Shown here: positions 839-53,193 of the stretch, piece by piece | Numbering within the stretch: the first letter of the stretch is position 1 | Layout of the letters: every line of letters starts with the position of its first letter | Origin: Cliona cf. orientalis | Lineage: Eukaryota; Porifera; Demospongiae; Clionaida; Clionaidae | Assembly (NCBI GenBank): GCA_963930775.1 | Contig: OZ005705.1 | Span: 5,270,001 to 5,334,000, forward strand | Length of the DNA stretch: 64,000 nt | Direction: 5' to 3' | Notes under the pieces: model-generated | The model's database searches: none | What the model was told of the DNA's origin: nothing | Seen by the model: only the letters and a program-made list of their open reading frames with translations | Made by a program: the position numbers and the translations under genes

Positions 839-1137
839 GGTTTGTAATTTTGACCAGACAAAAATTTTAGCATAGATTATAGTGCATGATCACACCGATC
901 ACCACGCCCAGCTAGCTAGGTAGGGAAAATCCCTACTTATGCACAATATGATCTGCTGCGCGCGCAATGCGCACTAGGAGAAATTGTGATGTCCAGGTGA
1001 CTCTTGCTACTAGGAGGGTTCAGTAAGCTTTGGAAGTATTAATTTCTGGCAGACTGCCATGTTTTCTTCACTTCACCAGGTGTTCACGAGACTAGGTGAC
1101 CATGCTCATTGCCCATTTCATCTATTACACTATGACC
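839..1137. other. Upstream flank of the SAM gene, no gene seen
   Basis: No coding frame or repeat is convincing here. It should contain the promoter of the minus-strand SAM gene, but no TATA-like element stands out at a useful distance. Confidence 0.4.
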
Positions 1138-1202
1138 TAGCCTCGTACCCAGGCCCTTTGAGGAGAAGGAGGAGAAAGGGCCTGGTACTGGGTACGAGGC
1201 TA
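1138..1202. mobile_element. 65-bp palindromic element with 9-bp target duplication
   Basis: Starts TAGCCTCGTACCCAGGCCC and ends in the matching inverse ...GGTACGAGGCTA, with only a short purine-rich loop (GAGGAGAAGGAGGAG). It is flanked on both sides by the exact 9-bp direct repeat ACTATGACC (1129-1137 and 1203-1211), which marks it as an insertion. Similar palindromes lie at 3659-3720, 4485-4551, 14464-14517 and 53140-53193. A 9-bp duplication is typical of Mutator-like transposases, but no transposase is present, so the superfamily is inference. Confidence 0.8.
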
Positions 1203-1296
1203 ACTATGACCAGTCTACCTCAAGCAATTCACTGAGCAAGAAGACGCACTCGTTTGAAAGTGATTCCAAGTCAGCGAGGGGCTAATAATATTACTT

Positions 1297-1527
1297 TACC
1301 GTATAGCCGGAAATATTGGCGGGAATTAAATTTGGCGGTTGAGCCCAAAATCGCTATATACTACAGGAATATTGGCGGATTTAAATTTGGCGGTTCGGTA
1401 CGGGATCGCCATATGTACATATGCGAGTAGGAAATTTTGGCGGATTTTAATTTGGCGGTCGTAATAATATTATAGACCGCCAAACCGCCAAATTTATTTC
1501 CCCGTCAAATTTTCCGGCTATATGGTA
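1297..1527. mobile_element. TA-flanked MITE with TACCGTATAGCCGG ends
   Basis: Terminal inverted repeats begin TACCGTATAGCCGGAAA and end TTTTCCGGCTATATGGTA. The interior is an irregular array of TTGGCGGATTTAAATTTGG-like units in both orientations. The TA ends suggest a non-autonomous Tc1/mariner-type element. There is no coding potential. Confidence 0.65.
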
Positions 1528-1639
1528 TTATTATTTTATTATTGTCACACACCACATAAGGTGCAATACAGGGTGCACAATTGCAAGATATTAAAAATAA
1601 AATAGTAATTAATTAGTTAGGCACAGCACATAATTATAC

Positions 1640-2020
1640 AAGTATAAAAACAATTGAAGGATGAAGTAGGGATGGCAGGATCAAAAAGTACACAAACAAG
1701 ATTTGTAAGTGATAATCGCATCTACTATACACCCCTACGCTTGCTTTTCTTTATTATTACGCACTTATTAATGTCAACATACTTGTCGAGTGAAGTATGT
1801 GGAAGATATTCAGGTTATTCCTAGTTGTCACGATGGTGGGATGGTCAGTTTGATTCAATCACATGCATTATTTCTGGTTATTTTTGCATCCCTCAACTAA
1901 AGCAAGCGTAGGGATGTATAATAGATGCGATTATCCCTTACAAATCTTGTTTGTGTACTTTTTGATCCTGCCATCCCTACTTCATCCTTCAATTTTATTC
2001 AATTGTTTTTATACTTGTCC
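1640..2020. repeat. Long inverted repeat, second copy at 40605-40965
   Basis: Left arm (about 1640-1760) begins AGTATAAAAACAATTGAAGG and runs through GGGATGGCAGGATC. The right arm (about 1895-2020) is its near-perfect reverse complement, with a spacer of about 130 bp. A closely similar arm-spacer-arm unit recurs at 40605-40965. The homology continues downstream of both copies, so this is the left part of a larger interspersed repeat. Confidence 0.75.
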
Positions 2021-3475
2021 CTGTTCTTTTTTTATTGCACATAGTGCATTTTATCAATGCCATCTTACATGGCTTGCTCACAACTTCTAATTAAGTGGAC
2101 AATGGGAGGTGCCGAAGTTTCGTAGCCACGCCTCTCGTTAACTTGCATTCATATTCCTATGTGATGAAGCAGGCTGATAAAGAAGGCTGTTTTAGGCGAC
2201 CCAAGTAGTGATGAGACTCTTCCGTTTAGGGAGAAAATCAAGTTCTAAATTTATTGCTAGCAGCAGCTACTCGGCATAATTCTCTGATCTGTACGTTACC
2301 GCTCCTCGAGCCTTGCGCCTTCAAGAGTCGCCGCCGTTATGATATCCGTATGATCTTTCCAGTGGAGCATTAGCGCTGCACGCGCTAGCGAGTAACTCGC
2401 CTATGCCTAGCCTAGCGCCTTACCGCTCCCCGAGCCTTGTGCCTTCTTATCCATGATCGATCCAGCGCGTTGCTGCACGCGCTTAGTAGCGAGTAGCTAG
2501 CTCGCCTCGGCCTCAGCTCGCGAGCTCGCCTGGGGGAGGGGGCGCTGTCACATGACTTCACCATGGCAACACATTCCGAGCATGCGCATTATATTATAAA
2601 ATGGCGTATCAGACACACCCAATTATCAATGCGCCGTACACACCCACTATTATGTAACTCAGGTCGAGATAAGGATTGCATAGTTGTTTCCCGTCCTGGC
2701 TGTTGATTCAATAGCATGCGGGCGGGCGGTTAACTTTCATTATTCATTATTCATTATTACCGGATGTGGTGTAAACCATAAATAGCCGCCGGGGGTACAT
2801 GACTCGAGCTAATGCCACAATCTTCAGCTGATATGGCGAGCACAGTCTTAGAACTATGAATGAAGCTACTCACAAGTATAGCGATCATCATGCAGAATGA
2901 GAACTGCAGTGAGCAAATACTGAATGAGCCATCAACATCATAACTCAGCTTGCAACTCGAGCGCACATGGAACAGACCGTAAATAATATTGAAATTTTCA
3001 ATTACGTCATCAATATTTTCGTTTTAATAGAAAATAAGTGCAATAATAGAAAAAGTAGGCGGTAGCTTGAAAGGCATGCGGGCGGTGGACGGGAAACTAT
3101 GATCCAATTTGTAGTGGCCTAATGCAGAACTTGCGTGCCACTGCACTGCGCGCTACAAAATGGAGTGGATTTATACTCAAACTAAGATGAGCGATTAAGG
3201 CAGTCTTGAGCTAGCCCTGATAATGAAAAAGAAAGAAAGAAAGAAAGATTGAGAAATGGCCACTTTTTTGAACATCTGGTTCTGGCATATACAATTGATT
3301 TGATAAATGATCTTGGTCTTATTAGATAGATAATTTGCTGGAGATTCTGATTTTCACACTTAGAAATTTCACAAAATTACCTATTTTGAGATATTTGGAT
3401 ATTTGCAATGTATTACATATATGGCATATCCGGGCCATCCCTACTTATAGAGTCTACCGACTCTATGATTAAAGT
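2021..3475 (+). repeat. Interspersed repeat, copy 1, palindromic 3' tip
   Basis: Homologous stretches recur at 40966-41645 (same orientation), 14090-14400 and 16335-16700 (opposite) and 19520-19700 (same). The 3' tip is a short palindrome, AGAGTCTACCGACTCT, followed by ATGATT at about 3450-3473, and the same tip recurs at 13705, 16338 and 43138. Inside are two GCGCTAGCGAGTAGCT-rich patches and an ATTCATTATTCATTATT microsatellite at about 2738-2758. No credible protein is encoded. The autonomous parent is not in the window. Confidence 0.65.
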
Positions 3476-3658
3476 AATTTCATCATAAATTTCATGATTG
3501 AGTTCTGGATACATTCTGGCATCCCGAATGAAGTTAGCACAGAGCTCACAGTCACTGTACTTTTTCCAATGCTGTTCTATATAAAAGGAGCTGTACCCTA
3601 CATTGGTGTACACCAAAGTTGACGCTTCCGAAAATATATCTCGTACCCACAGCACGTC

Positions 3659-3720
3659 TAGTCTCGCAGGCCAGCCCCTCCTACGCTACTTTGTGTAGGA
3701 GGGGCTGGCTCGCGAGACTA
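3659..3720. mobile_element. 62-bp palindromic element with 9-bp target duplication
   Basis: Begins TAGTCTCGCAGGCCAGCCCC and ends with the inverse ...GGCTGGCTCGCGAGACTA, with a loop of about 10 bases. It is flanked by the exact 9-bp direct repeat CAGCACGTC (3650-3658 and 3721-3729). The ends share TAGYCTCG with the palindromes at 1138 and 4485, but the arm sequence differs (CCAGCCCCTCC), so there are at least two sub-families. Confidence 0.82.
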
Positions 3721-3939
3721 CAGCACGTCCGATCGTGCAGACGGGAAATTCAGTGATTGTGATTGGTGTAGATCGCCACTGTCGTATACATCCGATTCTC
3801 ACCAACGTGACGGGTGTGATACACAGGAAACTGGCTGGAACCTCTTGAAAGGCGCTGAATATCATTTGCATCAATTCCTTCACACGTTCGCGCGCAATCC
3901 GCTCGCTCTATAGATCTAGCGCTAGCAAGCCACGCCCTA

Positions 3940-4960
3940 TAATAGTTCCGAGCGAAGCGAGAGTCATTTCGTATGGCTTCTGGGCGTATCTTTCGCGTGC
4001 GTCTAAATTTTCTTTCTTACTCTCTTTGACGACTCAGGCCACGTCGCCATGTGTTGCTGAGTCTAAAGCTGTGGCCTCCCTCAAGATGGTCATGCAAGGC
4101 CTACAAACTCTACCGTTCTGCTGGACTGTGCTTACCGGGCAAATCAATGTTCGCGCGGCCAAAAATGATCGCACCTTCTTGGCCCAAAGTTATTCGTCCT
4201 GTCGCTGATGGTAAAGATGTTGCTAGATGTGGCCTGTCAATTGGTCTACTCTCGGTTTCATTCTTCCAAGACTGACGACATAATGGAGCTCCTTTTGTTG
4301 CTAATACTTCAGCATAGACGAAAGAAACCCCTCCCTTGTCACGTGATCTACATGTGCAACACAAATTTAATTTACAGGGAAGGCGGGGGAACCCCAAAAT
4401 CATACAAATTCATCATGCATAAACAGGAAGTTCAGGATATTGGTTGGCATAGTGGCTAACGAGGACTGCTACGCAAAGTGTACGTAGCCTCGTCCCCAGG
4501 CCACTCCCACGTTAACATTGAAAACGTGGGAGTGGCCTGGGGACGAGGCTAAAGTGTACGTATAACTCTAGTCAAATTTGCAAATGGGACTTTCCCAGTC
4601 ACATGATCGATTTGCGGTTTTGGGCTTGCCTATAATTCCGAGCGAGCTCGAGAGTCGTTTGTTTCGTATGGCTTCATGGCGTATCTTTCGCGTGCGTCTA
4701 AAATTATTTTCTTTCTTACTCTCTTCGACGGGTGACTCAGGCCACGTGCCATGTGCTACTGCGCTCCTTTTGTTGCTAATGCTTCAGCATAAACGAAAGA
4801 AACCACTCCCTTGTCACGTGATCTACATGTGCAACACAAATTTAATTTCCAGGGAATTGGAATGCGGGGAACCCTAAAATCATACAAATTCATCATGCAT
4901 AAACAGGAAGTTCAATACAGGATATTGGTTGGCATAGTGGTTCGCTGAGCGAGGGCTGCT
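3940..4960 (+). repeat. Imperfect direct duplication of a ~300-500 bp unit
   Basis: About 3945-4455 and 4640-4945 share long runs in the same order. They start at CGTATGGCTTC...GGCGTATCTTTCGC and pass through CTCCTTTTGTTGCTAATRCT to the CATAAACAGGAAGTTCA...GGTTGGCATAGTGG end. The first copy has about 200 bp that the second lacks. Open frames in the unit are short and not conserved between copies, so it is probably non-coding repeat DNA. The 67-bp palindrome at 4485 sits just after the first copy. Confidence 0.65.
4485..4551. mobile_element. 67-bp palindromic element with 9-bp target duplication
   Basis: Arms TAGCCTCGTCCCCAGGCCAC and its inverse, extended by CTCCCACGTT/AACGTGGGAG, around a loop of about 7 bases. 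It is flanked by the exact direct repeat AAGTGTACG (4476-4484 and 4552-4560). This is the most perfect hairpin of the family, so it is probably young. Confidence 0.82.
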
Positions 4961-6764: not shown

Positions 6765-9700
6765 TCAAGTTTTAACGTACTTTGTGAGCCAATTGGGAGG
6801 TTTACGATTCCGTTGTGACCAGCGTGGTCCGGGTGTTTCATCATGATCAGGTGCTTGTGGTGCAGCCTGTGTCTTCGTCCCATGAGAGTCGGCCTGCACC
6901 ATCTCGTGCTCCGTACTGGGCTCAACCTCCTCGTCTGGAATATCTAACTCAGGCGGTTCGTTACTTTGAATTAAGTGTCTGCGATTTCGGGTAAGTACCT
7001 GTTCTCCCGTAGTGACCTCGTAGCTTCTTGGCCCTACAGGACCAGAACAAACAGCAGAACTCCATGTCCTCTGACCGGGTAGACGCACACGTACTGTTTC
7101 TCCAGCTTTGAGGGGTTTGAGTGGTTTAGCATGTCGGTCATAATAGTACTGCTGGCGTTCCTTTTGATTGTTGATTGCACGAGCGTCATCTTCCACAGGG
7201 TATCGAGGCTGGAGCAGTGCTCTAGACATGGGCAACAGAGTCCTACAACGACGGCCCAGGAATCTCTGTGATGGACTTGTGCCAATACCCTCTGACGGTG
7301 TGTTTCGCCAGTCAAGTAAGGCTAAGAATTCGGACTGGCCTGTTTCACGGCACTTGGTAAACAACCGTTTGACTGTCTTCACGGCATTCTCCGCCTTCCC
7401 ATTCAACTGTGGGTAGTGAGGAGACGAAGTGGTGTGTTCAAAACCCCACTTTCCTGCAAAAGTTGCAAATTCTGCCGATGAAAACTGAGGGCCATTATCC
7501 GACACCAAGACATCTGGTACTCCATATCTAGAGAACATACTTTTCAGGGCTTTGGCAACTCCACCTGTATTTGCTCTTGTGACGTTCTCCACCTCAATGA
7601 AATTGCTATAGTAATCACAGACTACCAGCAGTGTACGGCCATAGAAGTCACAAAGATCTGCACCGACCTTACTCCAGGGGCAAGGGGCAAACTCGTGTTG
7701 CTGGAGTGGTTCCTTGCTCGGTGAAGCACGATGAGACATGCATGTATCGCATTTCGAGATATACTCTTTCAATTCTGTCGACATCCTTGGCCAGTACAGG
7801 GACTCTCGGGCTCTTCTGACACAACCTTCAATGCCAATATGCGACGCATGGCATGTGTGCATCATCTCCTTACGCAAAGCCACCGGTACTACCACTTGCT
7901 GTCCCTTAAAGACCAGGTCATCTTGGATGGTTAATTCGTCATGGACGTCGTAGTATGCGTGTACAATTGCAGGCACTTCTGTCTTGCTATTTGGCCATCC
8001 ACGCAGAATTGTTTCTCTTAGTACTTGCAGCACTGGATCACTAGAAGAGAATTGCTTGAATCGGTCTAACTGTTCGGCAGGCATGACAAGCAAGTCGGCT
8101 GGGTTAACAGCTTCCAACTCTCGAGAAAACTCGCAAACATGAACTTCCGGCGGGTGGGCGCGACTGAGTGTGTCCGCTAGAAACATATCTTTTCCCCTCT
8201 TGTACTTCACGTGTAGGTTGTACTTCTGGAGCCGAAGCAGCATCCTTTGTAGTCGACTGGGTGCACTGTTTAGGGCTTTCAAGACAATGGATACAAGTGG
8301 CTGATGATCTGTCTCGACCTGTACAACATCTCTGCCATAGACATACGACTCAAAGTGGGTACAAGCAAACACAATTGCCAATAGCTCTTTCTCAATTTGT
8401 GCGTAGCGTGTTTCCGTAGCTGTCAGTGCCCTCGAGACATATGCGACTGGCTGACCATTCTGCAATAGGCTAGCACCAAGGCCCGTCTGAGAGGCATCAC
8501 ATTGCAGTGTAACTTCCTCATTGACGTTGTAGTACCGTCGTATTGGTGTACTGGACACAGCTGTTTTGAGATTCTTCAAGGCTTCTTGTTGAGCTGGGCC
8601 CCAGACCCAAACTGTGTCCTTCTGCGTAAGCTCTCTCAAAGGTTTCGTGATGTCCGACAGATGAGGAAGAAACTTACTAAGGTATTGTGCTAAGCCCAAC
8701 AAACGTTGAACGGCTGCTACGTCCTGGGGAGGAGGCATGTCCTGTATAGCCTTTACTTTGGAAGGATCAACGCACAGACCGTCCGCTGTTGCGACATGCC
8801 CAATGAAGGGTACTTCTCTCTGTCTGAGCTTCAACTTTGCATCGTTTAATTTCAAATTTCGTTCTTCGCATCTCTGCAGGAATGCCTCGAGACTCCGGTC
8901 ATGATTCGCTATTGCCTCATCCTCTGTATCTCCAAATCCAACTGTCACGAAATCATCGGCCACCACCTCAACTCCCTGTAAGCCTTCAATCACTTCATGC
9001 ATTCGTCGTTGGAACACCTCAGGAGCTGACGAAATTCCGAATGGCATCCGTCTCCATCGATATCTGCCAAAAGGAGTATTGAAGGTGGTTAGGAGTGAAG
9101 ACTCCTCATCGAGTGGGACATGCCAAAATCCATTTCTCACATCCAATACTGTGAACACTTTCGCCCCATACAGGCGGGTAGCAATCTCTTCGATAGTTGG
9201 CAGCGGATAGTGTTCCCGCTGAATGGCTTGGTTTAGGTCCTTTGGATCTAGGCATATTCGGAGTCGTCCATCACTCTTCGGTACTGCCACCATCGAGCTA
9301 ATCCAGGGTGTCGGTTCTGTCACGGGAACCAAAATTTCTTCCTCAACCAGTTGGTCTAATTTCTCCTTCAGACAATCTCGGAATGCTACATGCACTCTTC
9401 TTGGGGCATGTTGAATAGGAGTGCATTGTGGGTCGAGTCGAATGTGGTACTCCCCTTTCAGACAACCAACTCCAGGACTGAAAACCTTGGGGAATTTCTT
9501 GAATAGCTGCTCTTTTGTCATGGGTCCACCCTTTGTACTCACCGCGTAGACTTCTGAGTCCCCAGTGTTTGACTTGTTCAGCTGGTCATTGTCTAAGTAC
9601 GTGACGATGTTCATGCCAATACATGCTTTCCTCCCCAGCAATGGTCGGATATTTGGGGTATCCACAATGCGGCAGTCCAACCGGCATCGGTAGTCTCCAC

Positions 9701-10751
9701 GCCAGACTCGCAGTAGCGTTTGTCCAATGACTGGGATTGTAGTGCCTCCATACGCAGTGATTCGTTGCTTTGCTGGTTTGATGTGTTGCAACTTGTGGTC
9801 ACGAGTAGCTTTCTTATACAGGTCTAGAGGCACGACGTTGCACTGCGCTCCAGTGTCAACTTGGAAACGAAGGTAGCTACCATTTTCGAGCCTCAGAGTC
9901 ACACACTGGGAGTCATCTACGCCAGAACCATCGACGTGTGTCTGGAACACTTCATCATCTTCGACAGCCTTGACTGTCTGAGCGGCAGGTTTGCTACGGC
10001 ACTTGGCTGCAAAATGGTTCTGCTTATGGCACTTGTTGCAGGTTTTGCCATAGGCAGGACATAACTCCCTCTTATACAGCTCATGTCGTCGTCCACAGTT
10101 CCAGCACTCTCTGGGGGTCTTTCCTTCTTTTGAGGTTTTTGGAGGTGGATGATCATCGGTCTTGACCGCGTTCACTGCAGTGCTTAAACTATCATCCACG
10201 ACCTTCACCTGTGCTACCATGCTCTCTGCTGCATGACAAATTTCGTCTGTTTTCTTCAGTGTTAGGTCGGACTCACGCAGCAATCTCTCCCTGGCCTTGG
10301 CATCTCGGATGCCAAAGACAAGTCGATCGCGAAGAACCTGGTCGGGCGTTATCGTTTCAAATTCACAACCTGCAGCTATTTTCCTTAGCGCTGTTCGGTA
10401 CTGATCGTAGGTTTCACCGGGTTCCTGGATGCGGCGGTTGAATCGGTACCGCTCGAACGGCACATTCTTTCGTGGCTGGCAGTACGCCTCAAACTTGGCT
10501 AGTACTGGGGCTATCTTCGAGTCATCGCCCTCTGTTGTCCAATCTGTGAACGTCGAAAACACCTCCCGCGCTTCCTCACCGATCACTGTTAAAAGCGTTG
10601 CTACTTACACGGCTTCTGATTTTTTGTTGAGCTCTGTAGCCAACGAATAGTTATTCCAGGCTCGCTTAAATTTCTTCCATTTTGCGGCCGCTTGCGAGTC
10701 GTGTATCTCTAAAACAGGAGGCGGTGGTAGCATATAGTTGCTCGTGGCCAT
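6765..10751 (-). CDS. Gag-Pol polyprotein of the Gypsy element, one in-frame stop
   Basis: One frame of about 1328 codons from the ATG at 10749-10751, interrupted only by TAA at 10605-10607. Without a gap it then encodes, in order: a Gag-like helical region; a zinc knuckle (CWNCGRRHELYK... and CNKCHKQNHFAAKC); an aspartic protease (VDTGAQCNVVPL); reverse transcriptase (FGRYRWRRMPFGISSAPEVF, with VADD in place of the usual YxDD at the active site); RNase H (LQCDASQTGLGASLL); an HHCC integrase finger; an integrase core (DFYGRTLLVVCDYYSNF, VSDNGPQFSS); and a C-terminal tail. The order PR-RT-RH-IN is classical Ty3/Gypsy. Whether the stop is read through or simply kills this copy cannot be told from one copy. 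No frameshift separates gag from pol. Confidence 0.9.
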
Positions 10752-11060: not shown

Positions 11061-11669
11061 AGGGCAAGTGGAAACGGAGGAAGCGGAAAACGGTAACGGA
11101 ACCGGAAAGCTGAAGCGGAAATCGGAAACGGAAAAGCTGAAATTGGGAAATGATCGTCAACATTCGTTGCGCTAATGGCACCTTTTGCGCATGCGCGATC
11201 TGTTTGGGGGGCTAAGAAATGGCATTGCCAGCGTCTTTCAGCTTATCCTGACAGCTGGATACAAGATTCCTGGCTCGACCTAAGCTTGAGGATTAGGTTA
11301 TACTTGTTGCCAGGCCCCCAGGGACTAGGCTAGTATTAATATTAACTAAATTTTTGCTACAATTGCATGGTACTATTATCATGGCTCTCAGACAACGATG
11401 ATCACCGACAATACATTTATTAAATTAATGTCACTTGGATGTTTTACGTGGTTTTTACACTAGCTTCAGGGAACGAATAATACATCAATCTTCATTAAAT
11501 TTCTTATGCATGGCCAGATATCAAAGATACTAGCTCAATGCATGCTCAATACCGTTTATATTTCTGACGACCACTACCAATTTTCAGCTTTTCCGTTTCC
11601 GCTTTCCGTTTCAGTTTTCCGTTTCAGCTTTCCATTTCCGTTTTCCGTTTCCTCCGTTTCCACTTGCCC
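11061..11669. mobile_element. MITE with CGGAAA-rich ends and 8-bp duplication
   Basis: Left end GGGCAAGTGGAAACGGAGG and right end CCTCCGTTTCCACTTGCCC are reverse complements. They continue as about 100-bp arms of degenerate CGGAAA/GGAAAC units (11062-11160 and 11576-11669). The direct repeat GACAGCAC occurs on both sides (11053-11060 and 11670-11677). The 8-bp duplication suggests the hAT superfamily. The interior of about 400 bp has no gene. Confidence 0.7.
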
Positions 11670-12402
11670 GACAGCACGTGACTTAGCCTGCATGGTATCC
11701 ATTAGCTAATTTTGTAGTACAACTACTATCATGCAAGCTCTGGTTACATGCTTAAATAATATCTGGCCATCATGGAGTCCACTTTTATGTTTCTAGCTAT
11801 TAGCTACTCTGCCAACAAGCAGTAGCAGCTGTATGTTACAAGCCAGAGTAGATTTATACGCAAGAGATACCCTGGCACAGTCATAAAACACTGTATCACT
11901 ATAATATAAACTTGAATGTCTGAAGAGAGATCGCTAAATCGATACTCATGATACTACAGCCTTGTATACAACTTAGGCTAGCCAAACTGTTTCTAGCCAG
12001 CCACTAACTTCTTCTGACAATAATGAGCTCTGCTGACCCCAGTAAACTCATGGTAACCGCTGATTCTTCAAGTTCTACTATGAACATCGAAGTGCACTGG
12101 GGGTCCCCAAAATCATAATGAAAATGGGGACCTGGGGTCCCCATTCTCATGGAGTCCCCAAAATTTTATGACAATGGTCCCCCTTACACAAGCGTTGGAG
12201 CATTGATTATATTAATCTATGGTTGCCATGGAGCATGTTAAAGGTTGAGCATGATGAAAGGCAAGTTTTATGTATCAGACTATAGCGTTATCTTTGCTTA
12301 ATTGGGCACCGCTCTAAAGCCAGGATAGGACATAATCGCAGCAGAGGACTAATCTGGCGCGCCACACCCCTTGAGATTGAAGTGCGTAGCTATTGAGATG
12401 GC
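11670..12402. other. No gene seen
   Basis: No supported coding region. 12095-12185 carries GGGGTCCCCA-type inverted patches related to those at 5225-5350. Confidence 0.4.
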
Positions 12403-13077
12403 TAGTCTTGAACCCAGACCCCTCCCTTTTCCGCAGCACTGGAAGTATTGCATCACCAGCGCACTGAAGGAATGGTCTGGCAACTCTTGCATAGTTTTCG
12501 TGTTCTCTAGAGGAATTTGCATAGAGCCAATGGATGCTAGATATCATGTGATTTTTGAATTATGGACCGCAGGAACACGCGATCGTGGTTGATATGGCAT
12601 GCACTGATACGGCAATACTGTGATTGAAAAGTTATGGCGGAGTTTATCGATGCAGTAGACAACTAGAGAACACGGTGAAGGAGATGGGTTACACAGCACT
12701 CCGTGATAAGCCCGAGAAAGAAGCTGTTTTTCTAAGAATGTCTGTGTCTATGTTCAGCGATGGTCCTGACTCAACGAAGTGCTGTGTTAGTAGTCTACGT
12801 TTGCTCGAGTCTCCAGGTAGTGAGCAACTGCATAGCGAGCACCATTTCATGGCTGTGAAGTTGATATATGAGTCGCGCGAATTTTAATAATGCCAAAGAA
12901 CGAAGTTTTAAATTTTGAATTATAATGAAATTCCAATCATGTGACTATAGCTTTAATTGCATACCAAACTCACACGAAAACCGTGCAAGAGTTGCCAGAC
13001 CCTTCCTTCCACGTGCTGGTGATGCAATACATCCAGTGCTGCGGAAAAGGGGGGGGGGGGGTCTGGGTTCGAGACTA
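12403..13077. mobile_element. 675-bp inverted-repeat element with 9-bp duplication
   Basis: Starts TAGTCTTGAACCCAGACCCC and ends GGGTCTGGGTTCGAGACTA. The arms run about 100 bp (12403-12505 and 12965-13077) and the right arm holds a G12 run. It is flanked by the exact 9-bp repeat TGAGATGGC (12394-12402 and 13078-13086). Ends and duplication length match the tiny palindromes (TAGYCTCG, 9 bp), so this looks like a longer relative. The interior (about 12625-12890) has a broken frame with VKEMGYTALRDKPEKEAVF. It resembles the start of RecQ-like helicase cores only faintly, so no function is assigned. Confidence 0.75.
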
Positions 13078-13089
13078 TGAGATGGCGAT

Positions 13090-14463: not shown

Positions 14464-14517
14464 TAGTCTCATGTGCCAGCCCCTCCTTTGCGTAGGAGAG
14501 GCTGGCATGCAAGACTA
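14464..14517. mobile_element. 54-bp palindromic element
   Basis: TAGTCTCATGTGCCAGCCCC and inverse ...GGCTGGCATGCAAGACTA around a short loop, same sub-family as 3659-3720. No clear target duplication remains. A further half copy (TAGTCTCATGTACCAGCCCC) starts at about 15237 without a right arm. Confidence 0.65.
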
Positions 14518-20158: not shown

Positions 20159-21127
20159 ATGGAGAATACTATTCAAGGCATTTTAACTAAAATTAGAAAT
20201 AAGTACCTGAATATAACTACTCATCAGCTAAACCAGTGTCCTTTCCGCTCGAAAAAGTTGCCACTGTTGGCTACATTGGAACTAGTTACTAATGACTAAT
20301 GAACATACTGAACGTGTCAAAAGAGATGAGATAATTGTTGGTAGTCAGAATTATTACGATCTGTTTAAGGGTCGGAATGAAGTAAGTAAACAAGTCTTGG
20401 TGATTGAGGGTGAAGCTGGGATAGGTAAAACCATTCTATGCACATCGATCGTTGATGACTGGGCAAGTGGGATGCATTTTCAAGACTTTCTTATCACACT
20501 TCTAGATCTGCTACCTCTTGATCAAATAAATCTGGCTTCAGTTTCCTCGATCTTAGATCTCTTCAGAATGTTGTACGATTTAGAAAATGATGATGCTTTT
20601 TGCCTGGTTAAGTACTTGAGGAGCCATCCAAGCAACATTATCATTGTTATGGATGGGTGGGACCAATGCTGTGAGGCTAGTTATCAGCAGGGATCTTTCT
20701 TGAATTCTCTTATCTTTGATAATCCCTTCCCCATAAACTCATCAGTAACTATGCTTCTTGCCAGTAGACCAGGTTGTCGTCTACCACAGTTTCATCAATT
20801 TATTTCAATTATTAAGGGATTTAGCAAAGAGACTATAAGTACCTGTATTACTTCAGAATTTAGTTGTGACCCAGGAAAGATGGAATATTTTTCAGAGCAG
20901 TTAAAAAGCAATAATATGCTAGTTGGAAGTATGTGCCATGTCCCATTTAATCTTGCTCTCATCCTCAATCTTTGCCAGTCTGATGTACCACTACCAGTTA
21001 CTTGGACTGAGTTGTATACAACATTTGTTTGGGGACTTGCTCGACTCAGTGTTAAAAATAGTGGCAAATATGAACATGATATTGATCATTTATCATGCTA
21101 TGATGATCTCCCTAGAGAATTACAGTA
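20159..21127 (+). pseudogene. NACHT (NLR-type) NTPase fragment, frameshifted and truncated
   Basis: The ATG at 20159 opens a frame (MENTIQGILTKIRNKYL...) that runs into LVTN. There a tandem duplication of the 7-mer ACTAATG (20288-20294 and 20295-20301) shifts it. The rest reads on from the ATG at 20292 as a NACHT domain: Walker A GEAGIGKTILC, Walker B IIIVMDGWDQC, and a sensor-like motif MLLASRPGCRLP. The helical part ends at LPRELQ with a stop at about 21126. Known NLR proteins follow NACHT with winged-helix and LRR parts; here the sequence instead joins a truncated LTR element. NACHT-bearing receptors are innate immune sensors and are greatly expanded in sponges. With the frameshift and the missing C-terminus, this copy is probably dead. 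Confidence 0.8.
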
Positions 21128-27082: not shown

Positions 27083-30000
27083 CCACTCCCCTCCCTTGAA
27101 ACGGCACGTCCTCGTGCCGATATTGCATGAGTCACGTACTCCCCGTGTCGATCCGGAGGTCTCCTGTTGCGTGTTGAACGTCTGAGTTGGGGCTGTTGTG
27201 GAGGAGTCGGAGGGTTTGCATCAGACGCCGGTGGCGAATCTTCAGCTGAAGATGCTGGCTGCACATTTGATTCCTCGCTGGACAGCAATGAAGAATAGTG
27301 CGATAGTGGTGGAGTCGGCTGCTCTTTCTCACTACGGCCCTTGTAGTGTTTTAGCCAATCTGAGTGAACCACCAGCCGTTTTCTTTTGTTGTTTGCACTC
27401 CGGATTCTGTAGACGACATCACTCAAAACTTTGATAATTTCGTACGGCCCTTGCCATGGTCAGTGTAGCTTGCGTGACTTGCCCCTTCGAACTGCTGGTG
27501 AATGAAGCCAGACTTGGTCCCCAACAGTGTAAGGGCTGACCTGTGTTCGTCTATCATACAGCAGCTTTTGTCTTTTCTGCTCCACATCAGTGTTGTTTCG
27601 GACCAATTTGTAGGCATCTGCGAGTCGGTCTCGTAGCTTTAGTGCAAATTCGCTTGGAGACTCAAAAGTTTCGTCAGGTGGGGAACCGTACACAACATCA
27701 ACCGGTAGCCTCGCTTCACGTCCAAACATTAAGCTGAAGGGGGTGGCTTTTGTTGTTTCGTGGATGCTAGTACGATAAGCAAGCATAGCGGTTGGTAGCT
27801 GAAGGTCCCACCCGTCTTCCTTCTCTGTAGCAATAATGCTGAGCATGTTAAGCAGAGTACGGTTAAACCGCTCAACAAGGCCATCTGATTGAGGATGGTA
27901 GGGGGTCGTACGAGTCTTTTCTACACCCAACAGTCTGCATACTTCCTTGAGCAACATGGAATCGAAATTTTTCCCCTGATCGGTGTGCAAGGAGTCGGGT
28001 GCACCGAAACGAGAGACAAATTCATTCACAAAAATCCTAGCCACAGTAACAGCCTCCATATTTTGCATTGCATAGGCTTCCGTCCACTTGGTGAAGTAGT
28101 CCCCAAGCACAAGTATATACTTGTTGCCACGAGACGTTTCTGGGAGTGGGCCCAGGATATCCATGGCGACTCGCTCAAGTGGATTTCCCACCCTTTCTAT
28201 CTGCATTGGGGCTCGCAAAGCTTTCGAGGGTTACTTCCTAGCTCCACACTTCTCACACTTTCGACACCAATCTTCCACATCTCGCCGTTGCCCAACCCAG
28301 TAGAATCGCCATTTTACTTTCTGCAATACCTTGGTGATTCCGAGGTGGCCTGCTGTAGGACTATCATGGAATTGTTGGAGAACATCAGGGACTTGCTTTT
28401 TAGGAAGGACTAGTTGCAGATGTGAATCCTTTCCTCCTCCTCTTGCATCTTCCCACTTTCGATAGAGAATTCCATCCAGAAGGACCAGTTGCTGACGTTG
28501 TGCCCACAGATTTTGCAGTGTACGGCTGACCTGGCGAGGGTAGGAAAGGGGCATTGTATTACTTATCCAGCCAATCATTGTGCCAAGGTCCGTGTCAGCA
28601 TTCTGTAGTTGTCGTATGTCTGCTGGTGTCCACTGGGGGAACAAACTATCTTGCTGGGCTGAAAAGCTGCCTTGGCTGCACTGATTCACTGTAATAGTCG
28701 AACTGTCATCCTCGGGCTGTGAGCACAGGTGCCGTGACAGAGCATCTGCGTTTCCATGCTTCCGGCCTGGTCTGTGTTCCACATCAAAGTTGAACTCAGC
28801 CAGTTGTTCAAGCCATCTAGCTACCTGGCCTTCTGGCTCACGAAAGCTTCTTAGCCACTGCAAAGCACTGTGATCTGTGCGAACAATAAACTTTCGGCCA
28901 TACAGGTATGGGCGGAAGTGTCTAACAGCCCACACAAGTGATAGCATTTCTCTTCGAGTTGCAGAGTATTTCCTTTCTGCTTTAGACAGTGTACGACTGG
29001 CATACGCCACTACTTTCTCAGAATCTGACAGCTGGGACAACACTGCTCCCAGGCCATTGTTGCTGGCATCACAATCTACAACAAAAGTGCAGTTAAAATC
29101 GGGGAATGCCAATATTGGAGGTGAAACGAGCTTCCTCTTTAGCAATTCAAATGCTTCCTGGCATTCATCTGTCCAGTTCCAGGGTTTTCCTTCTTCTGTC
29201 AGGCAGTATAGAGGGGCAGCAGTGCAAGCAAAATCCTTGACGAAACGACGGTAGTATGAAGTGATGCCCAGGAACTGTCTAAGTTCCTTGAGCTTTGTAG
29301 GTGTGGACCATGCATTGATAATTTTTGTCTTCCCGGGATCTGTCTCGACTCCATTACTAGACACGATGTGCCCTAGATAGTGCACACTTTTCTGCAACAA
29401 ATGACATTTTCCGGGCTTCAGCTTCAGGCCCGCTTCACGCAACCGATCAAACACTTCTTTCAACCTTTGGAGGTGTTCTTCAATGGTATGGCTAAAGATG
29501 ATAATGTCATCCAGATAGACTAAACAGGTTTCCCACTGAAGTCCGCGCAGCACTAGCTCCATAAGCCGTTGAAAGGTGCTTGGGGCATTGCAAAGGCCAA
29601 ACGGCATTACTCTAAACTGGTACAGGCCGAATGGAGTTGAGAAAGCCGTTTTTTCCTTGTCAGAGGGATCCACTTCAACCTGCCAGTAACCGCTGGCTAG
29701 ATCCTAAGTCGAGAACCACTGGGCTCCGCTGAGGGCATCCAAAGTATCGTCGATTCGGGGAAGTGGATGTGCATCCTTTTGGGTCACTCCATTGAGCTTG
29801 CGGAAATCGACACAAAAACGAGTACTTCCATCCTTCTTTCGCACTATAACGATTGGCAAGGCCCAAAGGCCATGTGCTGGCTCTATTACATGCTGCTCCA
29901 GCATTTTATCCAAAAGCTTGCGTACTTCCTCGCGACGACTCCCTGGCAAACGTCGGGGTGGTTGCTTGATCGGTGCTGCTTGTTGTGTATCAATCTTGTG

Positions 30001-30905
30001 CTGCACTTTGTTTGTTCTCCCAACTTCACCATTGATCGAAATTATGTCTTAGTATTTATGTAGCAATGCGGTTAGCTGAGCTTTCTCCAGTGGGACCAGT
30101 GTGCTCTCAGCTTTCTCCTCCAAACTCTTGATGGCGGCTTCAATTTCCATCGAGGACTGCCGATTAGGAGTGTCCAGAGTACACACAACCGCAGAGGCCT
30201 CCTCCAAGCTAGTAAATTTTCCTATCCGTTCACTCTTTCGGAGTGTGACTGCATCAGTCGAGGGGTTTAGAACCTGCACAATAGTTTTACTGTGGTTAAC
30301 ACAAGATATCGAGTGAGCAACTAGTATACCACGGCGGTCCACAAAATTATATTCTGGTTCTACAACCCCTACATAACTCACATCGTCCCTGCCTCCTAGG
30401 AGTTGGACAGGAAGAAGAGCTTGGTGTTGTGCTGGAATGGTGGTCGTCTCCGAGATGCACAGATGACATACCAATGGAGCTGGGCTATCCATAGGTTTTA
30501 GTGGTGTAGACATCCCTCCTGCAAAGAGTGTCTCCTGCTGAAATTCCACTACACATCCATGCCGTTGTAGAAAATCAGCTCCTAACAGGCACCTTTGTGT
30601 TAGGCCAGTGGCCACCAGGACTCCATGGTATGCCTTCACCCCTCCCACATGTATGGAGACGTCTGCCTTCCCCAACAAATTCAAATTCTGTCCATTTGCT
30701 GCCATCACTGGGTAGGGTGGCTCTTCCAAGTCACAGTCTCATCCCCTAGTTGCTTCTCTCCAGAGGTCATCTCTTATGAGCGTTGCAGCTGATCCTGTAT
30801 CCACAAGCATAGAAGTTGACTCTCCCTCTACACTCCCTTGCACCATGGTAGCCATTCCCATAGCAACACTGCTCACGATTGCTCCATCTTGGCTCATTGT
30901 AGAGG
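27083..30905 (-). pseudogene. Pol region of the second Gypsy element
   Basis: From 30905 downward: a short leader, then a protease with LVDTGSAATL, stopped by TGA at 30739-30741. The frame reopens through the protease flap and the LLGADFLQRHG strand. RT follows (SRREEVRKLLDKMLEQHVIE, FCVDFRKLN) to a TAG at 29701-29703. It then continues with FGLYQFRVMPFGLCNAPSTF, YLDD, and RNase H (VVDCDASNNGLGAVLSQLSD). The integrase zinc finger ends at a frameshift near 28225. The core (MDILGPLPETSRGNKYILVL, HTDQGKNFDS, YHPQSDGLVERFN) and a C-terminal part follow, with a TGA near 27457. Classical PR-RT-RH-IN order. Several independent lesions make it inactive. Confidence 0.85.
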
Positions 30906-30908
30906 TCT

Positions 30909-31868
30909 TTATTGAGACGGCCGGCGGTTGACCTCTCCCACCGGCCCATGGTAGTTTAAAGGTTGCTGTCCTTGGGAATCGGATGGTTGCTGAGGGGGTT
31001 CAGGGCAGTTGCGTCGTAGGTGCCCTGGCATCCCACAGTTCCAGCACTTTCCTCGCCACCCAGAAGTACGTCGTCCAGGTGGACGGGAAGACACTTTCTG
31101 TTGCTCACTACGCAGAGCTGCCAGCTCTTCAGTTAGCTTCCTAACTTGGGCAGCAAGCTCCTGGACACTAGTATCTCTTGGTCCAACAGGTGGTCGTCTG
31201 GGTTGGGTAGCATTGGCTTGGAGGACATCTTCGGAGCTTGTGTCATCAATAGCAATGCTGCATAGCTCTGCCTGCTGTCTGCTTCGCTGAAGCCTTTTCT
31301 GTGATTCCTCTACTATTTCCAGTTTCCTGGCCAATTCTAGCGCAGCGTCAAGGGTTGCAGGCATCTCTCGCATGAGCTGCAATTGGATAGATGATGACCT
31401 CACCCCTCGAATGAACTGGTTTCGAACTAAGTCGTTGCGTTGGTCATCTGGCCAGCGGGGGTACGCTTTAGCAACCAGTACCCTCAGCTCTCCTGCGAAT
31501 TCTGCCAATTTCTCACTCTGCTTCTGCGTGCGATTTTGTAGAAGAAACTGCCACTCTAGCTCACTGCCATCGGGGGCAAAACGTTGTAGTAAGCAGGCTT
31601 TCACAGCGTCGTAATCCTCTGATCCCACTAGGCCCTGCTGATTCACCACTCGAAATGGTTCATCTTCCAGAAGAGGTAGCAGCTCTTTCACTCTCTGTGC
31701 AGCCGAAATGTTTGCTTCTCGGATGTATAATTCGAACCTCAGTAGCCACAACTGTAGATCAGCTGAAGCAGAGAATTTCGATGGAGGTCGAACACTCATT
31801 CGCACAGGGGCTGTGGGGGCGGTGGATGCTGCTGCAGTGGGTGGTTGAGGCTCTTGATCGTCAGACAT
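30909..31868 (-). CDS. Gag protein of the second Gypsy element
   Basis: Intact frame of 319 codons from MSDDQEPQPP to a TAA. It has a proline/alanine-rich start, then a capsid-like helical domain (FSASADLQLWLLRFELYIRE, ALELARKLEIV). A coiled stretch (VQELAAQVRKLTEELAALRS) and one CCHC zinc knuckle (CWNCGMPGHLRRNC) near the C-terminus complete it. Gag packages the element RNA. It is separated from the pol frame by a stop, so pol would need its own start or readthrough. Confidence 0.85.
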   Translation of the reverse strand: MSDDQEPQPPTAAASTAPTAPVRMSVRPPSKFSASADLQLWLLRFELYIREANISAAQRVKELLPLLEDEPFRVVNQQGLVGSEDYDAVKACLLQRFAPDGSELEWQFLLQNRTQKQSEKLAEFAGELRVLVAKAYPRWPDDQRNDLVRNQFIRGVRSSSIQLQLMREMPATLDAALELARKLEIVEESQKRLQRSRQQAELCSIAIDDTSSEDVLQANATQPRRPPVGPRDTSVQELAAQVRKLTEELAALRSEQQKVSSRPPGRRTSGWRGKCWNCGMPGHLRRNCPEPPQQPSDSQGQQPLNYHGPVGEVNRRPSQ

Positions 31869-32931: not shown

Positions 32932-45789
<12,858 letters not shown>

Positions 45790-47795: not shown

Positions 47796-50503
47796 TTTTT
47801 TTTTTTTTTTTTTCTCTATGAAATTTTAATGCATTTGCATAGTGGTTGGACAGATAGCTGAAAAGCTAGTATTGAAGTCCTCCCACAGGACAAACATACA
47901 CAAAGTTAATATGGGGTGACAGAAAGGGCTGAGCTTAACAATGGGAACGTAAACAGGATTTGAAAACATTGGGGGAAGGACTGTTAACAACAAATGAGGA
48001 CAAGGAGTTCCAGATAGGGATGACATCAATAAAGAAGGAGTGGCGGTGGGAGAGGGTAGAGACGTAGGGTTGGAAGAGAATTTTGTTGTGGGGGTGTCGG
48101 GGGGAAGGGGAAGGGTGATTAATAAAAACTGTTGGTGGAAGGCGAGAGAGCTTATTGGTAATGTTGTACACTATCTTTAGTTTGATGTTTCTTCTGCGAG
48201 TTTGGAGAGGTTGCCAGTTTAGTTTTGACTGCAGCTCAGTCTTGCTCATGGACCAGTTCCTTGTGACAGTTCTCCCGGCAAACTTTTGAACATTGTCAAG
48301 GTTGGCTATGTCCTTCTTGAGGTGGGGGTCCCATACGGCGGCACAGTATTCCAGTTTTGGCAGTATGGTAGAGTTGATGACTTTCAGACGAACCTCAGGT
48401 GGTGCCTGATGGAATTGTCGGTGGATAAGTCCTATCTGCCGTTTGGCTGCTTTGCATGTTGAGTTGATATGGTCTGACCATGTCAGGCGAGAGGATAGAG
48501 TGACTCCAAGGTACTTTACAGCCTGGGAGGGTGGGATTTGATGACCTTCCACCTTGAGGTGGATGGGTACAGGTTGCCTGCTTCTGGTGATGGTGAGAAG
48601 CTGAGTTTTTGAGTGATTCGGTCTAAGACCATGAGACTTGATCCATTGCAGTATGGAGTCAACATCATTTTGCAGAGAGTCACAGTCCTTCTCCGAGTTT
48701 ACAGGCTTGTACAGGAGTATATCGTCAGCATACAGGACTAGTCTAGCTCCAGAAGAGAGTGTAAGTTTGGAAATAGAATTCATGAATATGATGTAAAGGA
48801 GTGGACCGAGGATAGAGCCTTGAGGTACTCCTGAGGTCACTGGTTGATAGCTAGATGAGAAGCCATCCAGAGCGACTCGTTGATATCTGCCAGAGAGGTA
48901 ACTGGCGAACCATTGGTGGAGTTGACCGGTTATACCGATATTTGCAAGTGACTGCAGCAGGTGGTTGTGGGGCACGGAATCGAAGGCCTTCTTGATGTCG
49001 AAAAATACTGCAGCTACTTGCCGATTGGTGGACAGAGATTGGTGCCAGTCTCTAGTAATGGTCAGGAGAGCGTCCTGTGTGGAGGACCTCGGTCTGAATC
49101 CAAATTGGCAGTCTGAAAGGAGGTTGTTTCGGAGTAGGAAGTCCATTATCCTGTTGTGGATGCATCTTTCAAGAATCTTGGAGATTAGTGATAAGAGAGA
49201 GATTGGACGGTAGTTGGAAGCTTCAGAGGGGTCTCCAGATTTGAAGATTGGCGTGATGTTTGACCTTTTCCAATCGTCTGGTACTGTACTCTTCTTGAGC
49301 GAGAGGTTAAATAAGGCTGTTAAGGCTGGAGCGATTGAAGTTGCTGTTCCGCGTAGCATGATGCTAGAGATCCCGTCAGGCCCGGAGGCTGTGTTGATCT
49401 TGTGGGTTGACAGCAATTTTAGGACCTCATCATGGCTGCAGGTGACAGTTGATAGCATTGGGCTGGGGGGTGAGGGAAAGTTGATGTGAGGCAAGGCATC
49501 ATTCTTGGTGAAGCAGGAAGTGAAAAAGTTGTTTAGTAAGTTTGCTTTCTTGGTGGGGGTGCTGGCTTTAGTGCCACTGTGGTTGAGACTGGCTGGCGTC
49601 CGGGTGTGTTTGGGATTGAGCTTATGGAGTTGTGACCAAAAGTCGCGTGGTGTGCGAAGATTCGTAGCAAGCTGGTTGAAATAGATCTTTTTGGCTGAGC
49701 GTAGGGCACTGGTCACACGATTCCGGAGTTTAGTATACTTAGCCCAGGCTTTAGCGGTTCCAACCCTTTTTGCGAGCCTGAAGAGGCGGCATTTTTTCCT
49801 CACTAGGTGTATGAGGTCATCTGTTAGGTAAGGAACCTTGGATTTTGGCTTGATGCATTTCGTGGGGATGGTGTCTGCTATGACAGTCATGAACACATCC
49901 GACCATTCTGCCCAGAAGTTGTTCACGTCGTCTGCTGAGTACATTGATGTAGGTAAGCACTGGAGCGTAGCATTGGCGGTGTCAAAGTCAGCTTGTTTAT
50001 AGAGCCAGACTTTCCTACGACTTCTCTTAGGATGGGGCACACTATTGTTTGCTAGAGAGATCTGAAGGATGTTGTGATCTGATCCCAAGAGAGGAGGTAA
50101 GTCTGTGCAGTGGGAGTGAGTAATGTTATTTGAGATGTATATGTGGTCAATAATGGTGGAGGAGGTGGAGGTGGTGCGGGTAGCGGTGGTGACTACTTGT
50201 TTTAAACCCAGTTTATCCTCGATGGAGTTGAGGATGGGTAGGAGGGGGTGGCTCGATGTAGGGGAGCGGTCTATATTGAAGTCACCGAGGAGAATAAGAG
50301 ACTTGAGCCTGGAAGGTGATAGCTGTTCCAAAGCGGATTCCACATCGGATAGTAGAGAAGCATCAGCTGAAGGTGGGCGATACAGAAGACCACAAACCAC
50401 CTTGGAGCTTCGTAGAGGGAGTTCGACGATGAGGAGTTCTGCGCTATTGTGGGATAGGAGGACGTCAACATGTAGATGGTCTCTAATGTGTACTATTACC
50501 TAA
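47796..50503 (-). mobile_element. 5'-truncated LINE with poly(A) tail
   Basis: On the minus strand: a partial endonuclease, a full reverse transcriptase, a short 3' UTR and an 18-base A tail (T run at 47796-47813 on the plus strand). Truncated at about 50503 within the endonuclease. The intact frame and the unbroken tail suggest a young copy. It belongs to the broad CR1/Jockey group and differs from the 17530-19462 LINE in tail type. Confidence 0.88.
47935..50489 (-). CDS. LINE endonuclease (partial) and reverse transcriptase
   Basis: Open from the truncation at about 50489 to a stop at 47935. It starts in the endonuclease (HIRDHLHVDVLLSHNSAELL), with the catalytic-core blocks LGDFNID and SDHNIL. 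The RT follows: TASGPDGISSIML, NYRPISLLSLISKILERC, VFFDIKKAFDSVPHNHLL, SGVPQGSILGPLLY and the active-site box LYADDILLY. The thumb/C-terminal LEYCAAVWDPHLKKDIANL and NWQPLQTRR end it. More than 820 residues are free of stops and frameshifts. The N-terminal endonuclease residues and any ORF1 are missing, so it cannot transpose alone. Confidence 0.88.
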
Positions 50504-52059: not shown

Positions 52060-53139
52060 TAACAAAGAGCATTGAGAATAATGCCAAGACTAATTAATAG
52101 GCACTATTTCCCCAAAAATTCGAATAATTAGAACAGCTATGACCTTTGCACCGGAAAAAAATTTGCTAAGTAGCTAAAAAAAAACAAAATTCCAATAGCT
52201 ATGACCTTGTGCTTGCGTATTTTTTTTTTTTTTTTTTTGTCTATAATATTCCTTGCTTCATAAAAGCAAAGGATGCACAATAGCCAGAAGTATATATATT
52301 AAATAATGCTAAGCTAAGGCTAATCAGGTGTGCACCTTGGTACATAAACACAGTGACAAAAAGGAATAATATGAAAAACAGGTATAGCTAAATATAATAG
52401 TTTAAAAGTTAAGTTGAGCTGCTTTTAAGAGCCAGCTTAAATCAAAATGACTGGAGACTTGGGGTAAGTACTAGGTCCTCCTTTAGCGTATTAATTTTAC
52501 ACCACAATAATTAATTTTTCGTGCAGCACATGAAGAAGGCCTGGGGACAAGGCTACGTTATAAACTACACACTACTGAGGTTATCACACATAATATACAC
52601 ACGAGGTGGTTATGTATTTGCATAATCCACCTCGTGCATCTATTACTGACTAAGCATTGTGTACAACTGCCAATTGGACTACACCTTGGTGGTCTATGCT
52701 AGATAAACACTAGCTAGGTGGTGCCTTTGATGCACCCACTCACTATAGTATCATAATATTATAGGGATGCACCTTAGTGGAATATTAATTTTATGCACAT
52801 AATAATATAATAATTATTATAGTCTTGTTTGCTATCCCAGTTCACAACAGCTGCAGTATGATTAAGTTTAACTGTCCACCAGTGACAACTGATTGATGTT
52901 CATCATGTATTCTCACCTGGTATAGCTACATGCCATATCAATATGTGTTTGATTCAATTCTTGACTCGTTATTGGTCTTAAGTGAATTGTTATCTAGGCC
53001 TCTACGTATACAGATTTGATTTTGACTCTTGGAGTGCAACAGAATTAATCTCAGAGGACCTATAGGTCAAAATTTCAGGGGAGGACTCCCAGACCCCCTT
53101 CATTATGTTGCATGCCCAAAAAAAGTTGCGTTCAGTCAC
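52060..53139. other. No gene seen
   Basis: A-rich and T-rich stretch with a T18 run at about 52221-52238 and a CCTGGGGACAAGGCTA half-palindrome at about 52541. No exon recognised. Confidence 0.45.
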
Positions 53140-53193
53140 TAGTCTCGTCCCCAGACCCTCCAGTGCGCACTGAAGGGTCTGGGGACGAGACTA
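53140..53193. mobile_element. 54-bp palindromic element
   Basis: TAGTCTCGTCCCCAGACCCT and inverse ...GTCTGGGGACGAGACTA around CCAGTGCGCACTG. Same family as 1138 and 4485. No target duplication visible. Confidence 0.75.

What the first reader, a model, noticed from the sequence alone, without database searches (positions are those of the whole stretch)
1129..4560. Tiny 62-67 bp palindromic transposons with exact 9-bp target duplications
Three elements (1138-1202, 3659-3720, 4485-4551) are almost nothing but two inverted arms starting TAGYCTCG, yet each is flanked by a perfect and different 9-bp direct repeat (ACTATGACC, CAGCACGTC, AAGTGTACG). Three different exact 9-mers cannot be chance. This makes them some of the shortest elements with clear insertion marks. 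Two more palindromes (14464, 53140) and half copies (15237, 52541, 11310) share the ends. A 9-bp duplication points to a Mutator-like transposase working in trans.
Basis: partly seen in the sequence, partly recalled or inferred. Interest (0 to 1): 0.75.

Follow-up and report, generated by a model that had tools for sequence, protein, structure and literature searches.

The report
Scars of collapsed helicase-encoding transposons
The three tiny palindromes are real and still carry exact duplicated target sites, but they look like collapsed leftovers of larger DNA transposons that carry a helicase gene, rather than self-standing miniature transposons moved by a Mutator enzyme.

Summary
Palindromes 1138-1202, 3659-3720 and 4485-4551 have exact, different 9-bp flanking duplications. 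Genome-wide there are 675 such palindromes of 22-52 bp, 760 of 52-82 bp and 313 of 84-114 bp, against 5, 2 and 4 for reversed-pattern controls. Among 20 short ones tested, a 29-mer, two 32-mers and a 33-mer keep exact 9-bp duplications.

The Mutator reading fails. Mutator genes exist here, but the two elements whose ends I could define (of four fetched) begin GGG. The same TAGYCTCG ends and 9-bp duplications bound 6-9 kb elements encoding a DUF6589 protein and a RecQ-like helicase. With 9-bp duplications this fits AcademH, though the transposase could not be compared with a named Academ protein. Most ends carry their own subterminal hairpin, CCAG...CTGG.

The tiny copies tested are nearly unique: within three mismatches the three window palindromes have 0, 0 and 1 other copies, while a 64-nt end of the long elements occurs 95 times. 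My best reading is scars: a longer element inserted, then lost its interior in place, leaving both tips and the original duplication. A mobile tiny element is not excluded.

The parts
1129..1137 (.). left copy of 9-bp target duplication ACTATGACC (right copy 1203-1211)
1138..1202 (+). 65-bp palindromic remnant; its left part matches a long-element end through the hairpin and, by eye, 2-3 nt beyond (CTGGTAC), then comes the other tip
   Evidence: no other genome copy within 3 mismatches
3650..3658 (.). left copy of 9-bp target duplication CAGCACGTC (right copy 3721-3729)
3659..3720 (+). 62-bp palindromic remnant of the TAGTCTCGC..GCCAGCCCCTCCTAC subfamily
   Evidence: no other genome copy within 3 mismatches
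4476..4484 (.). left copy of 9-bp target duplication AAGTGTACG (right copy 4552-4560)
4485..4551 (+). 67-bp palindromic remnant of the CCCAGGCCACTCCCACGTTTTCAATGTT subfamily (the subfamily of the long elements L041, L043, L044, L045)
   Evidence: one other copy at 3 mismatches
12403..13077 (+). 675-bp element with the same kind of ends (left tip TAGTCTTG) and exact 9-bp duplication TGAGATGGC (12394-12402 and 13078-13086); its subterminal sequence nearly matches the left end found beside a DUF6589 gene in L105
   Evidence: no match to transposase pieces in the window
14464..14517 (+). 54-bp degraded palindrome of the family, no duplication seen
53140..53193 (+). 54-bp palindrome of the family, no duplication
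52541..52555 (-). single family-like end (TAGCCTTGTCCCCAG)
11310..11332 (-). single family-like end (TAGCCTAGTCCCTGG)
11160..11267 (-). uninterrupted (empty) paralogue of the target of the 81-bp palindrome L020/L021; shows an 8-bp duplication GGCAATGC
1638..2036 (.). inverted-repeat element; two aligned stretches (1638-1717, 1929-2036) are empty paralogues of the target of palindrome L012 (9-bp duplication CCCTACTTC)
34658..34727 (+). empty paralogue of the target of palindrome L037 (9-bp duplication GAGCGAGCC)

Best explanation
The palindromes are in-place remnants ('scars') of longer cut-and-paste DNA transposons of the helicase-encoding AcademH type. A parent element, either a full 6-9 kb copy or one of its 0.3-0.7 kb non-autonomous derivatives, inserted and duplicated 9 bp (8 bp in some members of one subfamily). 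Later its interior was lost at the same site, leaving about 13-42 bp of each end joined between the original duplications. Most parental ends are themselves hairpins (tip TAGYCTCGNNC, then CCAG...CTGG). So inner-arm sequence of one end lies in direct orientation with outer-arm sequence of the other, and a break or slip rejoined through that short homology leaves a single hairpin with a tip on each side. I think the trigger is imprecise or abortive excision by the element's own transposase, perhaps helped by its helicase. Shown: ends, duplications, empty sites, candidate parents, hairpins, and near-single-copy state of the four palindrome sequences tested. Inferred: loss in place, the excision trigger, and the helicase's role.
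For: Uniqueness: within 3 mismatches the three window palindromes have 0, 0 and 1 other copies, and the L016/L049 64-mer has 2 copies in all. A 64-nt end of the long elements, searched the same way, occurs 95 times. Among 53 tiny sequences 8 have a neighbour within edit distance 5; among 83 long ends 60 have one within 4 more than 20 kb away. Size series without a fixed unit: 675, 760 and 313 palindromes in 22-52, 52-82 and 84-114 bp, with exact 9-bp duplications down to 29 bp. Paired tips in tiny elements are no more alike than the two ends of 30 longer copies, as expected if both come from one parent. Loops often follow one parental end in linear order: 40 of 53 match a long end over more than 60% of their length, and 42 of 53 have a centre that is not palindromic by my threshold; 1138-1202 runs 2-3 nt past the hairpin into parental interior sequence. 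Intermediate: L098, 123 bp, keeps both hairpins and an exact 9-bp duplication. Among the tiny palindromes the 8-bp duplications occur only in the long-loop subfamily (8 versus 7 at 9 bp there, 0 versus 15 elsewhere, Fisher p = 0.002, unchanged when the duplicate L020/L021 is counted once), as if set by the parent.
Against: L016 and L049 share the same junction, differ at 2 of 64 bases and sit in different targets, as two copies of one mobile 64-mer would. L009 with window 4485, and L028 with L040, are also close (edit distance 5 and 4). No locus was found with a long copy in one duplicate and a scar in the other. 23 of 53 tiny palindromes and 7 of 20 shorter ones have no clear duplication. Symmetric perfect palindromes (L057, L059, L060) show no break point. 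The 40-of-53 loop count also includes some symmetric palindromes, so it overstates one-sided loops. The whole-genome uniqueness test was run on only four tiny sequences, and its control counts ends, of which each long element has two. One of the 21 longer copies also has an 8-bp duplication outside the long-loop subfamily (L084).
Confidence: 0.62

Rival explanations
1. The palindromes are self-standing miniature transposons: tip + one hairpin + tip is a complete substrate and is inserted in trans by the DUF6589/AcademH-type transposase, making its own 8-9 bp duplication.
For: Both tips and exact duplications present. L016 and L049 share a junction at two unrelated targets. Strong single-strand hairpins, z -6.4 to -13.4 for the three window elements. 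Empty paralogous targets prove insertion of something with these ends.
Against: No amplified family seen: the three window elements are single-copy or nearly so, while a long-element end occurs 95 times. Sizes form a series down to under 30 bp. Paired ends are no more alike than in longer elements.
Confidence: 0.22
2. A Mutator-like (MULE) transposase mobilises them in trans.
For: 9-bp duplications are usual for MULEs (recalled), and MULE genes are present (58 matches).
Against: Two MULE elements here have GGG termini with their own exact 9-bp duplications (L103 484-5740, L104 1225-6266); the ends of the other two fetched loci were not found. 0 of 20 MULE loci have TAGYCTCG ends on both sides within 1.5 kb. 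TAGYCTCG ends bound DUF6589 + helicase elements instead, whose 20 scanned open frames gave no MULE match.
Confidence: 0.03
3. Ordinary internal deletions by replication slippage or cruciform processing between the hairpin ends, with no part played by transposase.
For: The hairpin architecture supplies direct and inverted short homologies; the L049 junction can be explained by a 4-bp homology (AGGA), read by eye.
Against: Nothing tested separates this from imprecise excision; the large number of scars with both tips intact favours an end-directed process but does not prove it, since the search pattern required both tips.
Confidence: 0.13

Closest known systems
AcademH (Academ superfamily DNA transposons encoding a helicase; Kojima 2020, not held, known here only through passages of PMC10045372 and PMC10799480)
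   Same: helicase-encoding DNA transposon with 9-bp duplications
   Different: 8-bp duplications also occur here, 10-bp was not seen; a hairpin in each end and the scars are not mentioned in the passages I could read; transposase kinship not tested
MITEs (non-autonomous inverted-repeat elements)
   Same: the 0.12-0.7 kb members have ends and duplications, and several of their end sequences recur many times
   Different: the palindromes tested are nearly unique, so they do not behave as an amplified MITE family
Excision products of P elements (long staggered cut, repair involving Bloom helicase; PMC7776569, passages)
   Same: an end-directed break could leave part of both inverted ends between the original duplications
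   Different: the stagger of this transposase is unknown and retained ends here reach about 40 bp; that P scars are palindromes with the duplication is my recall, not in the passages read
Mutator/MULE elements
   Same: 9-bp duplication
   Different: different termini (GGG... in the two defined here) and different transposase in the same genome
REPIN palindromes of bacteria (recalled)
   Same: short dispersed palindromes with hairpins
   Different: REPINs are amplified families; the palindromes tested here are not

Membership tests
AcademH | encodes a helicase besides the transposase | tested here: met
   DEAD helicase in L041, L042, L044, RecQ-like against solved structures (E 4e-25, L042), tblastn relatives in L043 and L045
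AcademH | 9 or 10-bp target duplications (PMC10045372) | tested here: met
   L041, L044, L045 exact 9 bp, L043 one mismatch, L042 none; of 21 longer copies of 0.12-0.64 kb 13 exact 9 bp, 3 with one mismatch, 1 exact 8 bp, 4 none
AcademH | Academ-type DDD/E transposase | tested here: inconclusive
   DUF6589 protein found; no Pfam match there is labelled Academ, no solved structure matched at E up to 1 (one open frame), the AcademH paper is not held, and the term DUF6589 occurs in no held paper
AcademH | clusters with Academ in a transposase tree | not testable with these tools
Mutator/MULE | MULE transposase inside elements with these termini | tested here: not met
   (20 open frames, no PF10551)
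Mutator/MULE | 9-bp target duplication | tested here: met
   not discriminating, since two true MULE elements in this genome share it
MITE | inverted ends and target duplication without coding capacity | tested here: met
MITE | amplified, near-identical copies | tested here: not met
   for the three window palindromes; recurrence of longer copies' ends:

The most novel reading that the evidence does not exclude
A single subterminal hairpin with a tip on each side, as little as about 30-65 bp, is a complete mobile unit for a helicase-encoding transposase, and the genome keeps generating such units afresh from each of its many subfamilies rather than amplifying one of them.
Probability: 0.15. 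Interest if true: 0.7.

Novelty: new variant of a known kind. Interest (0 to 1): 0.45.

Why it matters
If the scar reading holds, one genome holds over a thousand candidate records of how a helicase-carrying transposon leaves or collapses, for a group whose chemistry, as far as I know, has not been worked out: repair homologies and duplication length can be read from sequence alone. It also warns that a palindrome with a perfect target duplication is not by itself proof of a tiny mobile element. The hairpin inside the ends, with arms that tend to vary together, is a concrete, testable feature that may be what the transposase or its helicase recognises.

Tried and rejected
Rejected: a Mutator source. 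Rejected for lack of support: birth of the palindromes by fold-back copying of a single end. It predicts that paired tips match better in tiny than in long elements, and they do not: identical outer 16-mers in 23 of 53 tiny against 20 of 30 long, or 22 of 36 tiny when both ends carry CCAG. Considered and left open: replication slippage against imprecise excision. Species not identified: Eunapius fragilis was considered, but its longest scaffold is 24.99 Mb against 37.5 Mb here (passages). Paper searches for AcademH, Academ with helicase, Academ in sponges, short palindromic MITEs, Academ MITEs, hairpin origin of MITEs and excision footprints listed no title or abstract start that describes these elements; I saw passages of PMC10799480, PMC10045372, PMC9587614, PMC8290104, PMC12616128 and PMC7776569 only, and most subscription papers are not held. 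No structure prediction was run, because its stated rule does not cover genes taken from this genome.
Full report
WHAT IS THERE. The window is a 64-kb piece of a 216.8-Mb eukaryotic assembly (species not established). The three palindromes are exactly as described: 1138-1202 (65 bp), 3659-3720 (62 bp) and 4485-4551 (67 bp), each with an exact and different 9-bp flanking repeat. A loose scan of the window for TAG-ended inverted pairs with matching flanks returned these three plus one more, a 675-bp element at 12403-13077 flanked by TGAGATGGC; the same scan with the right flank shifted by 20 bases returned none from 1,089 pairs.

GENOME-WIDE. The pattern TAGYCTCG...CGAGRCTA gives 675 palindromes of 22-52 bp, 760 of 52-82 bp and 313 of 84-114 bp, against 5, 2 and 4 for the reversed-pattern control. 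I examined flanks of 53 distinct palindromes of 50-90 bp, all from the window and from stretches of contig C1 that the tool listed first: exact 9-bp duplication in 17, exact 8-bp in 5, with one mismatch allowed 22 and 8, none in 23. A nested 45-bp pairing and one identical repeat copy were dropped before that count. Wrong-partner flanks matched in 0 of 200,000 draws once same-locus and same-flank pairs were skipped; the unfiltered control had 14 in 20,000, about what two loci entered twice would give. Twenty palindromes of 24-50 bp gave 11 exact 9-bp duplications, 2 with one mismatch and 7 without. Joining the flanks of 31 insertions and searching the sequence in hand found uninterrupted targets for L012 and L037 (9 bp), L020/L021 (8 bp, one event in two duplicate loci) and L022 (9 bp, one mismatch between its two copies); three of these four have an empty target in this window. 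L032 matched only with gaps near the site and is not counted; the other queries had none in the sequence in hand.

WHO OWNS THE ENDS. From the first 100 places of a stricter end pattern I fetched five pairs of facing ends 5-9 kb apart. L041 (8,835 bp), L044 (6,081 bp) and L045 (8,683 bp) have exact 9-bp duplications, L043 (5,976 bp) one mismatch, L042 none. All five contain DUF6589 (PF20231) sequence by profile or by tblastn. On the opposite, convergent strand they carry helicase sequence: Pfam DEAD in L041, L042 and L044, tblastn relatives in L043 and L045, RecQ-like against solved structures for L042. PF20231 has 122 matches in the genome, with 102 of 338 candidates scored. A search with a 64-nt end returned eight facing pairs 4-9 kb apart, three of them already fetched; in five of the eight a PF20231 match lies between the ends, a sixth is L041, and two have none listed. 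One DUF6589 locus chosen without regard to its ends, L105, has a TAGTCTCG end on its left with nearly the same subterminal sequence as the window's 675-bp element; its right end was not found within the 7 kb fetched.

NOT MUTATOR. The genome has 58 MULE matches. Within 1.5 kb, 0 of 20 MULE loci are bounded by TAGYCTCG ends on both sides. Four MULE loci were fetched at 8 kb. In two, inverted ends beginning GGGATTCACTTTG and GGGTTATTGCATAAGG with exact 9-bp duplications bracket the gene; in the other two no ends were found. So the MULEs whose ends are known here use other termini, and the 9-bp duplication does not discriminate.

ANATOMY OF AN END. Nearly all ends read TAGYCTCG (TAGTCTTG at window 12403), a few bases, then CCAG, arm, loop, arm, CTGG; the right end of L043 lacks the inner arm. 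The pattern TAGYCTCG-N2-6-CCAG-N20-50-CTGGT occurs 2,857 times against 4 in the control. Over 28 distinct outer arms drawn from the 100 rows listed, the eight positions inside CCAG/CTGG pair with their own inner arm 53.6% of the time, against 43.6% (sd 2.4) when inner arms are exchanged, 0 of 5,000 shuffles reaching it. The shuffle ignores relatedness and the effect is modest, so this is support rather than proof. A stricter scan for ungapped stems passed 9 of 53 non-tiny ends against 0 shuffled; many stems have a bulge or mismatch. As single-stranded DNA, the L044 end is matched or beaten in folding energy by 1 of 200 shuffles and the L010 end by 6 of 200.

WHAT THE TINY ONES ARE. Against 96 long ends, 40 of 53 tiny palindromes match one end, starting at the tip, over more than 60% of their length. 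Some of these are symmetric palindromes whose second arm also counts, so the figure overstates one-sided loops; 42 of 53 have a centre that is not palindromic by my threshold. Window 1138-1202 includes CTGGTAC, running past the hairpin as in L042, L048 and L078. L098 (123 bp, exact 9-bp duplication) keeps both hairpins with 30 bases between them. Longer copies look like normal insertions: of 21, 13 have exact 9-bp, 3 one-mismatch and 1 exact 8-bp duplications, 4 none.

WHY SCARS. Searched over the whole genome with up to three mismatches, the three window palindromes have 0, 0 and 1 further copies, the L016/L049 64-mer has two copies in all, while a 64-nt end of the long elements occurs 95 times. 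In the sampled set 8 of 53 tiny sequences have a near relative (edit distance up to 5) against 60 of 83 long ends (up to 4, more than 20 kb away). A transposing 65-mer should form families; remnants of many different parents should not. The paired tips are as alike as the two ends of longer copies and no more, which argues against a special single-end origin. Among tiny palindromes the 8-bp duplications are confined to the long-loop subfamily, as expected if the parent set them; one longer copy of another subfamily, L084, also has 8 bp. Against this reading, L016 and L049 share one junction at two targets, and I found no site with a long copy and a scar side by side.

MECHANISM. Shown: insertion with duplication, candidate parents, hairpin ends, near-unique remnants in the four cases tested. 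Inferred: the interior was lost in place, most likely by imprecise or abortive excision, with rejoining through the short homologies that hairpin ends provide. P elements, which cut 17 nt inside the element and whose breaks are repaired with the Bloom helicase homologue (PMC7776569, passages), are a precedent for end-directed breaks; that their scars keep palindromic ends with the duplication is my recall. The helicase's role is speculation.

NAME. PMC10045372 (passages) states that AcademH generates 9 or 10-bp duplications and links this to its helicase; KolobokH also encodes a RecQ helicase (PMC9587614, passages), but Kolobok inserts at TTAA (recalled). AcademH is therefore the best fit. That DUF6589 is the Academ transposase is my inference; the defining paper is not held.

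Noticed in passing
   Followed up: yes
window 1647-1999 and 40601-40958: Two copies of another inverted-repeat element (arms of 101 and 112 bp); a further copy elsewhere is the target of palindrome L012.
   Followed up: partly
window 6768-10586 and 27463-31868, minus strand: LTR-retrotransposon-like open frames (reverse transcriptase, RNase H, integrase, zinc knuckle).
   Followed up: no
window 47938-50400, minus strand: LINE-type endonuclease/reverse transcriptase open frame of 821 aa.
   Followed up: no
window 20292-21125, plus strand: NACHT-domain open frame.
   Followed up: no
window 50990-51619, minus strand: Tyrosine-recombinase-like open frame (phage integrase/DUF3504), possibly Crypton-like (recalled).
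   Followed up: no
L103:484-5740 and L104:1225-6266: Mutator-like elements with GGG termini and exact 9-bp duplications.
   Followed up: partly
L020/L021, L050, L054: Palindromes with two different arms (TCTCCCC and GGCC types) and 8-bp instead of 9-bp duplications.
   Followed up: partly
L092:21-342 and 345-975: A 322-bp member appears inserted within the tip of a 631-bp member of the same family; ATCGCTCAG stands on both sides of the composite.
   Followed up: partly
L041-L045: Transposase pieces of L041, L043, L044 and L045 are about 36-70% identical to each other (L042 less), while their outer 64-95 bp are 88-97% identical in DNA; the ends are far better conserved than the genes.
   Followed up: no
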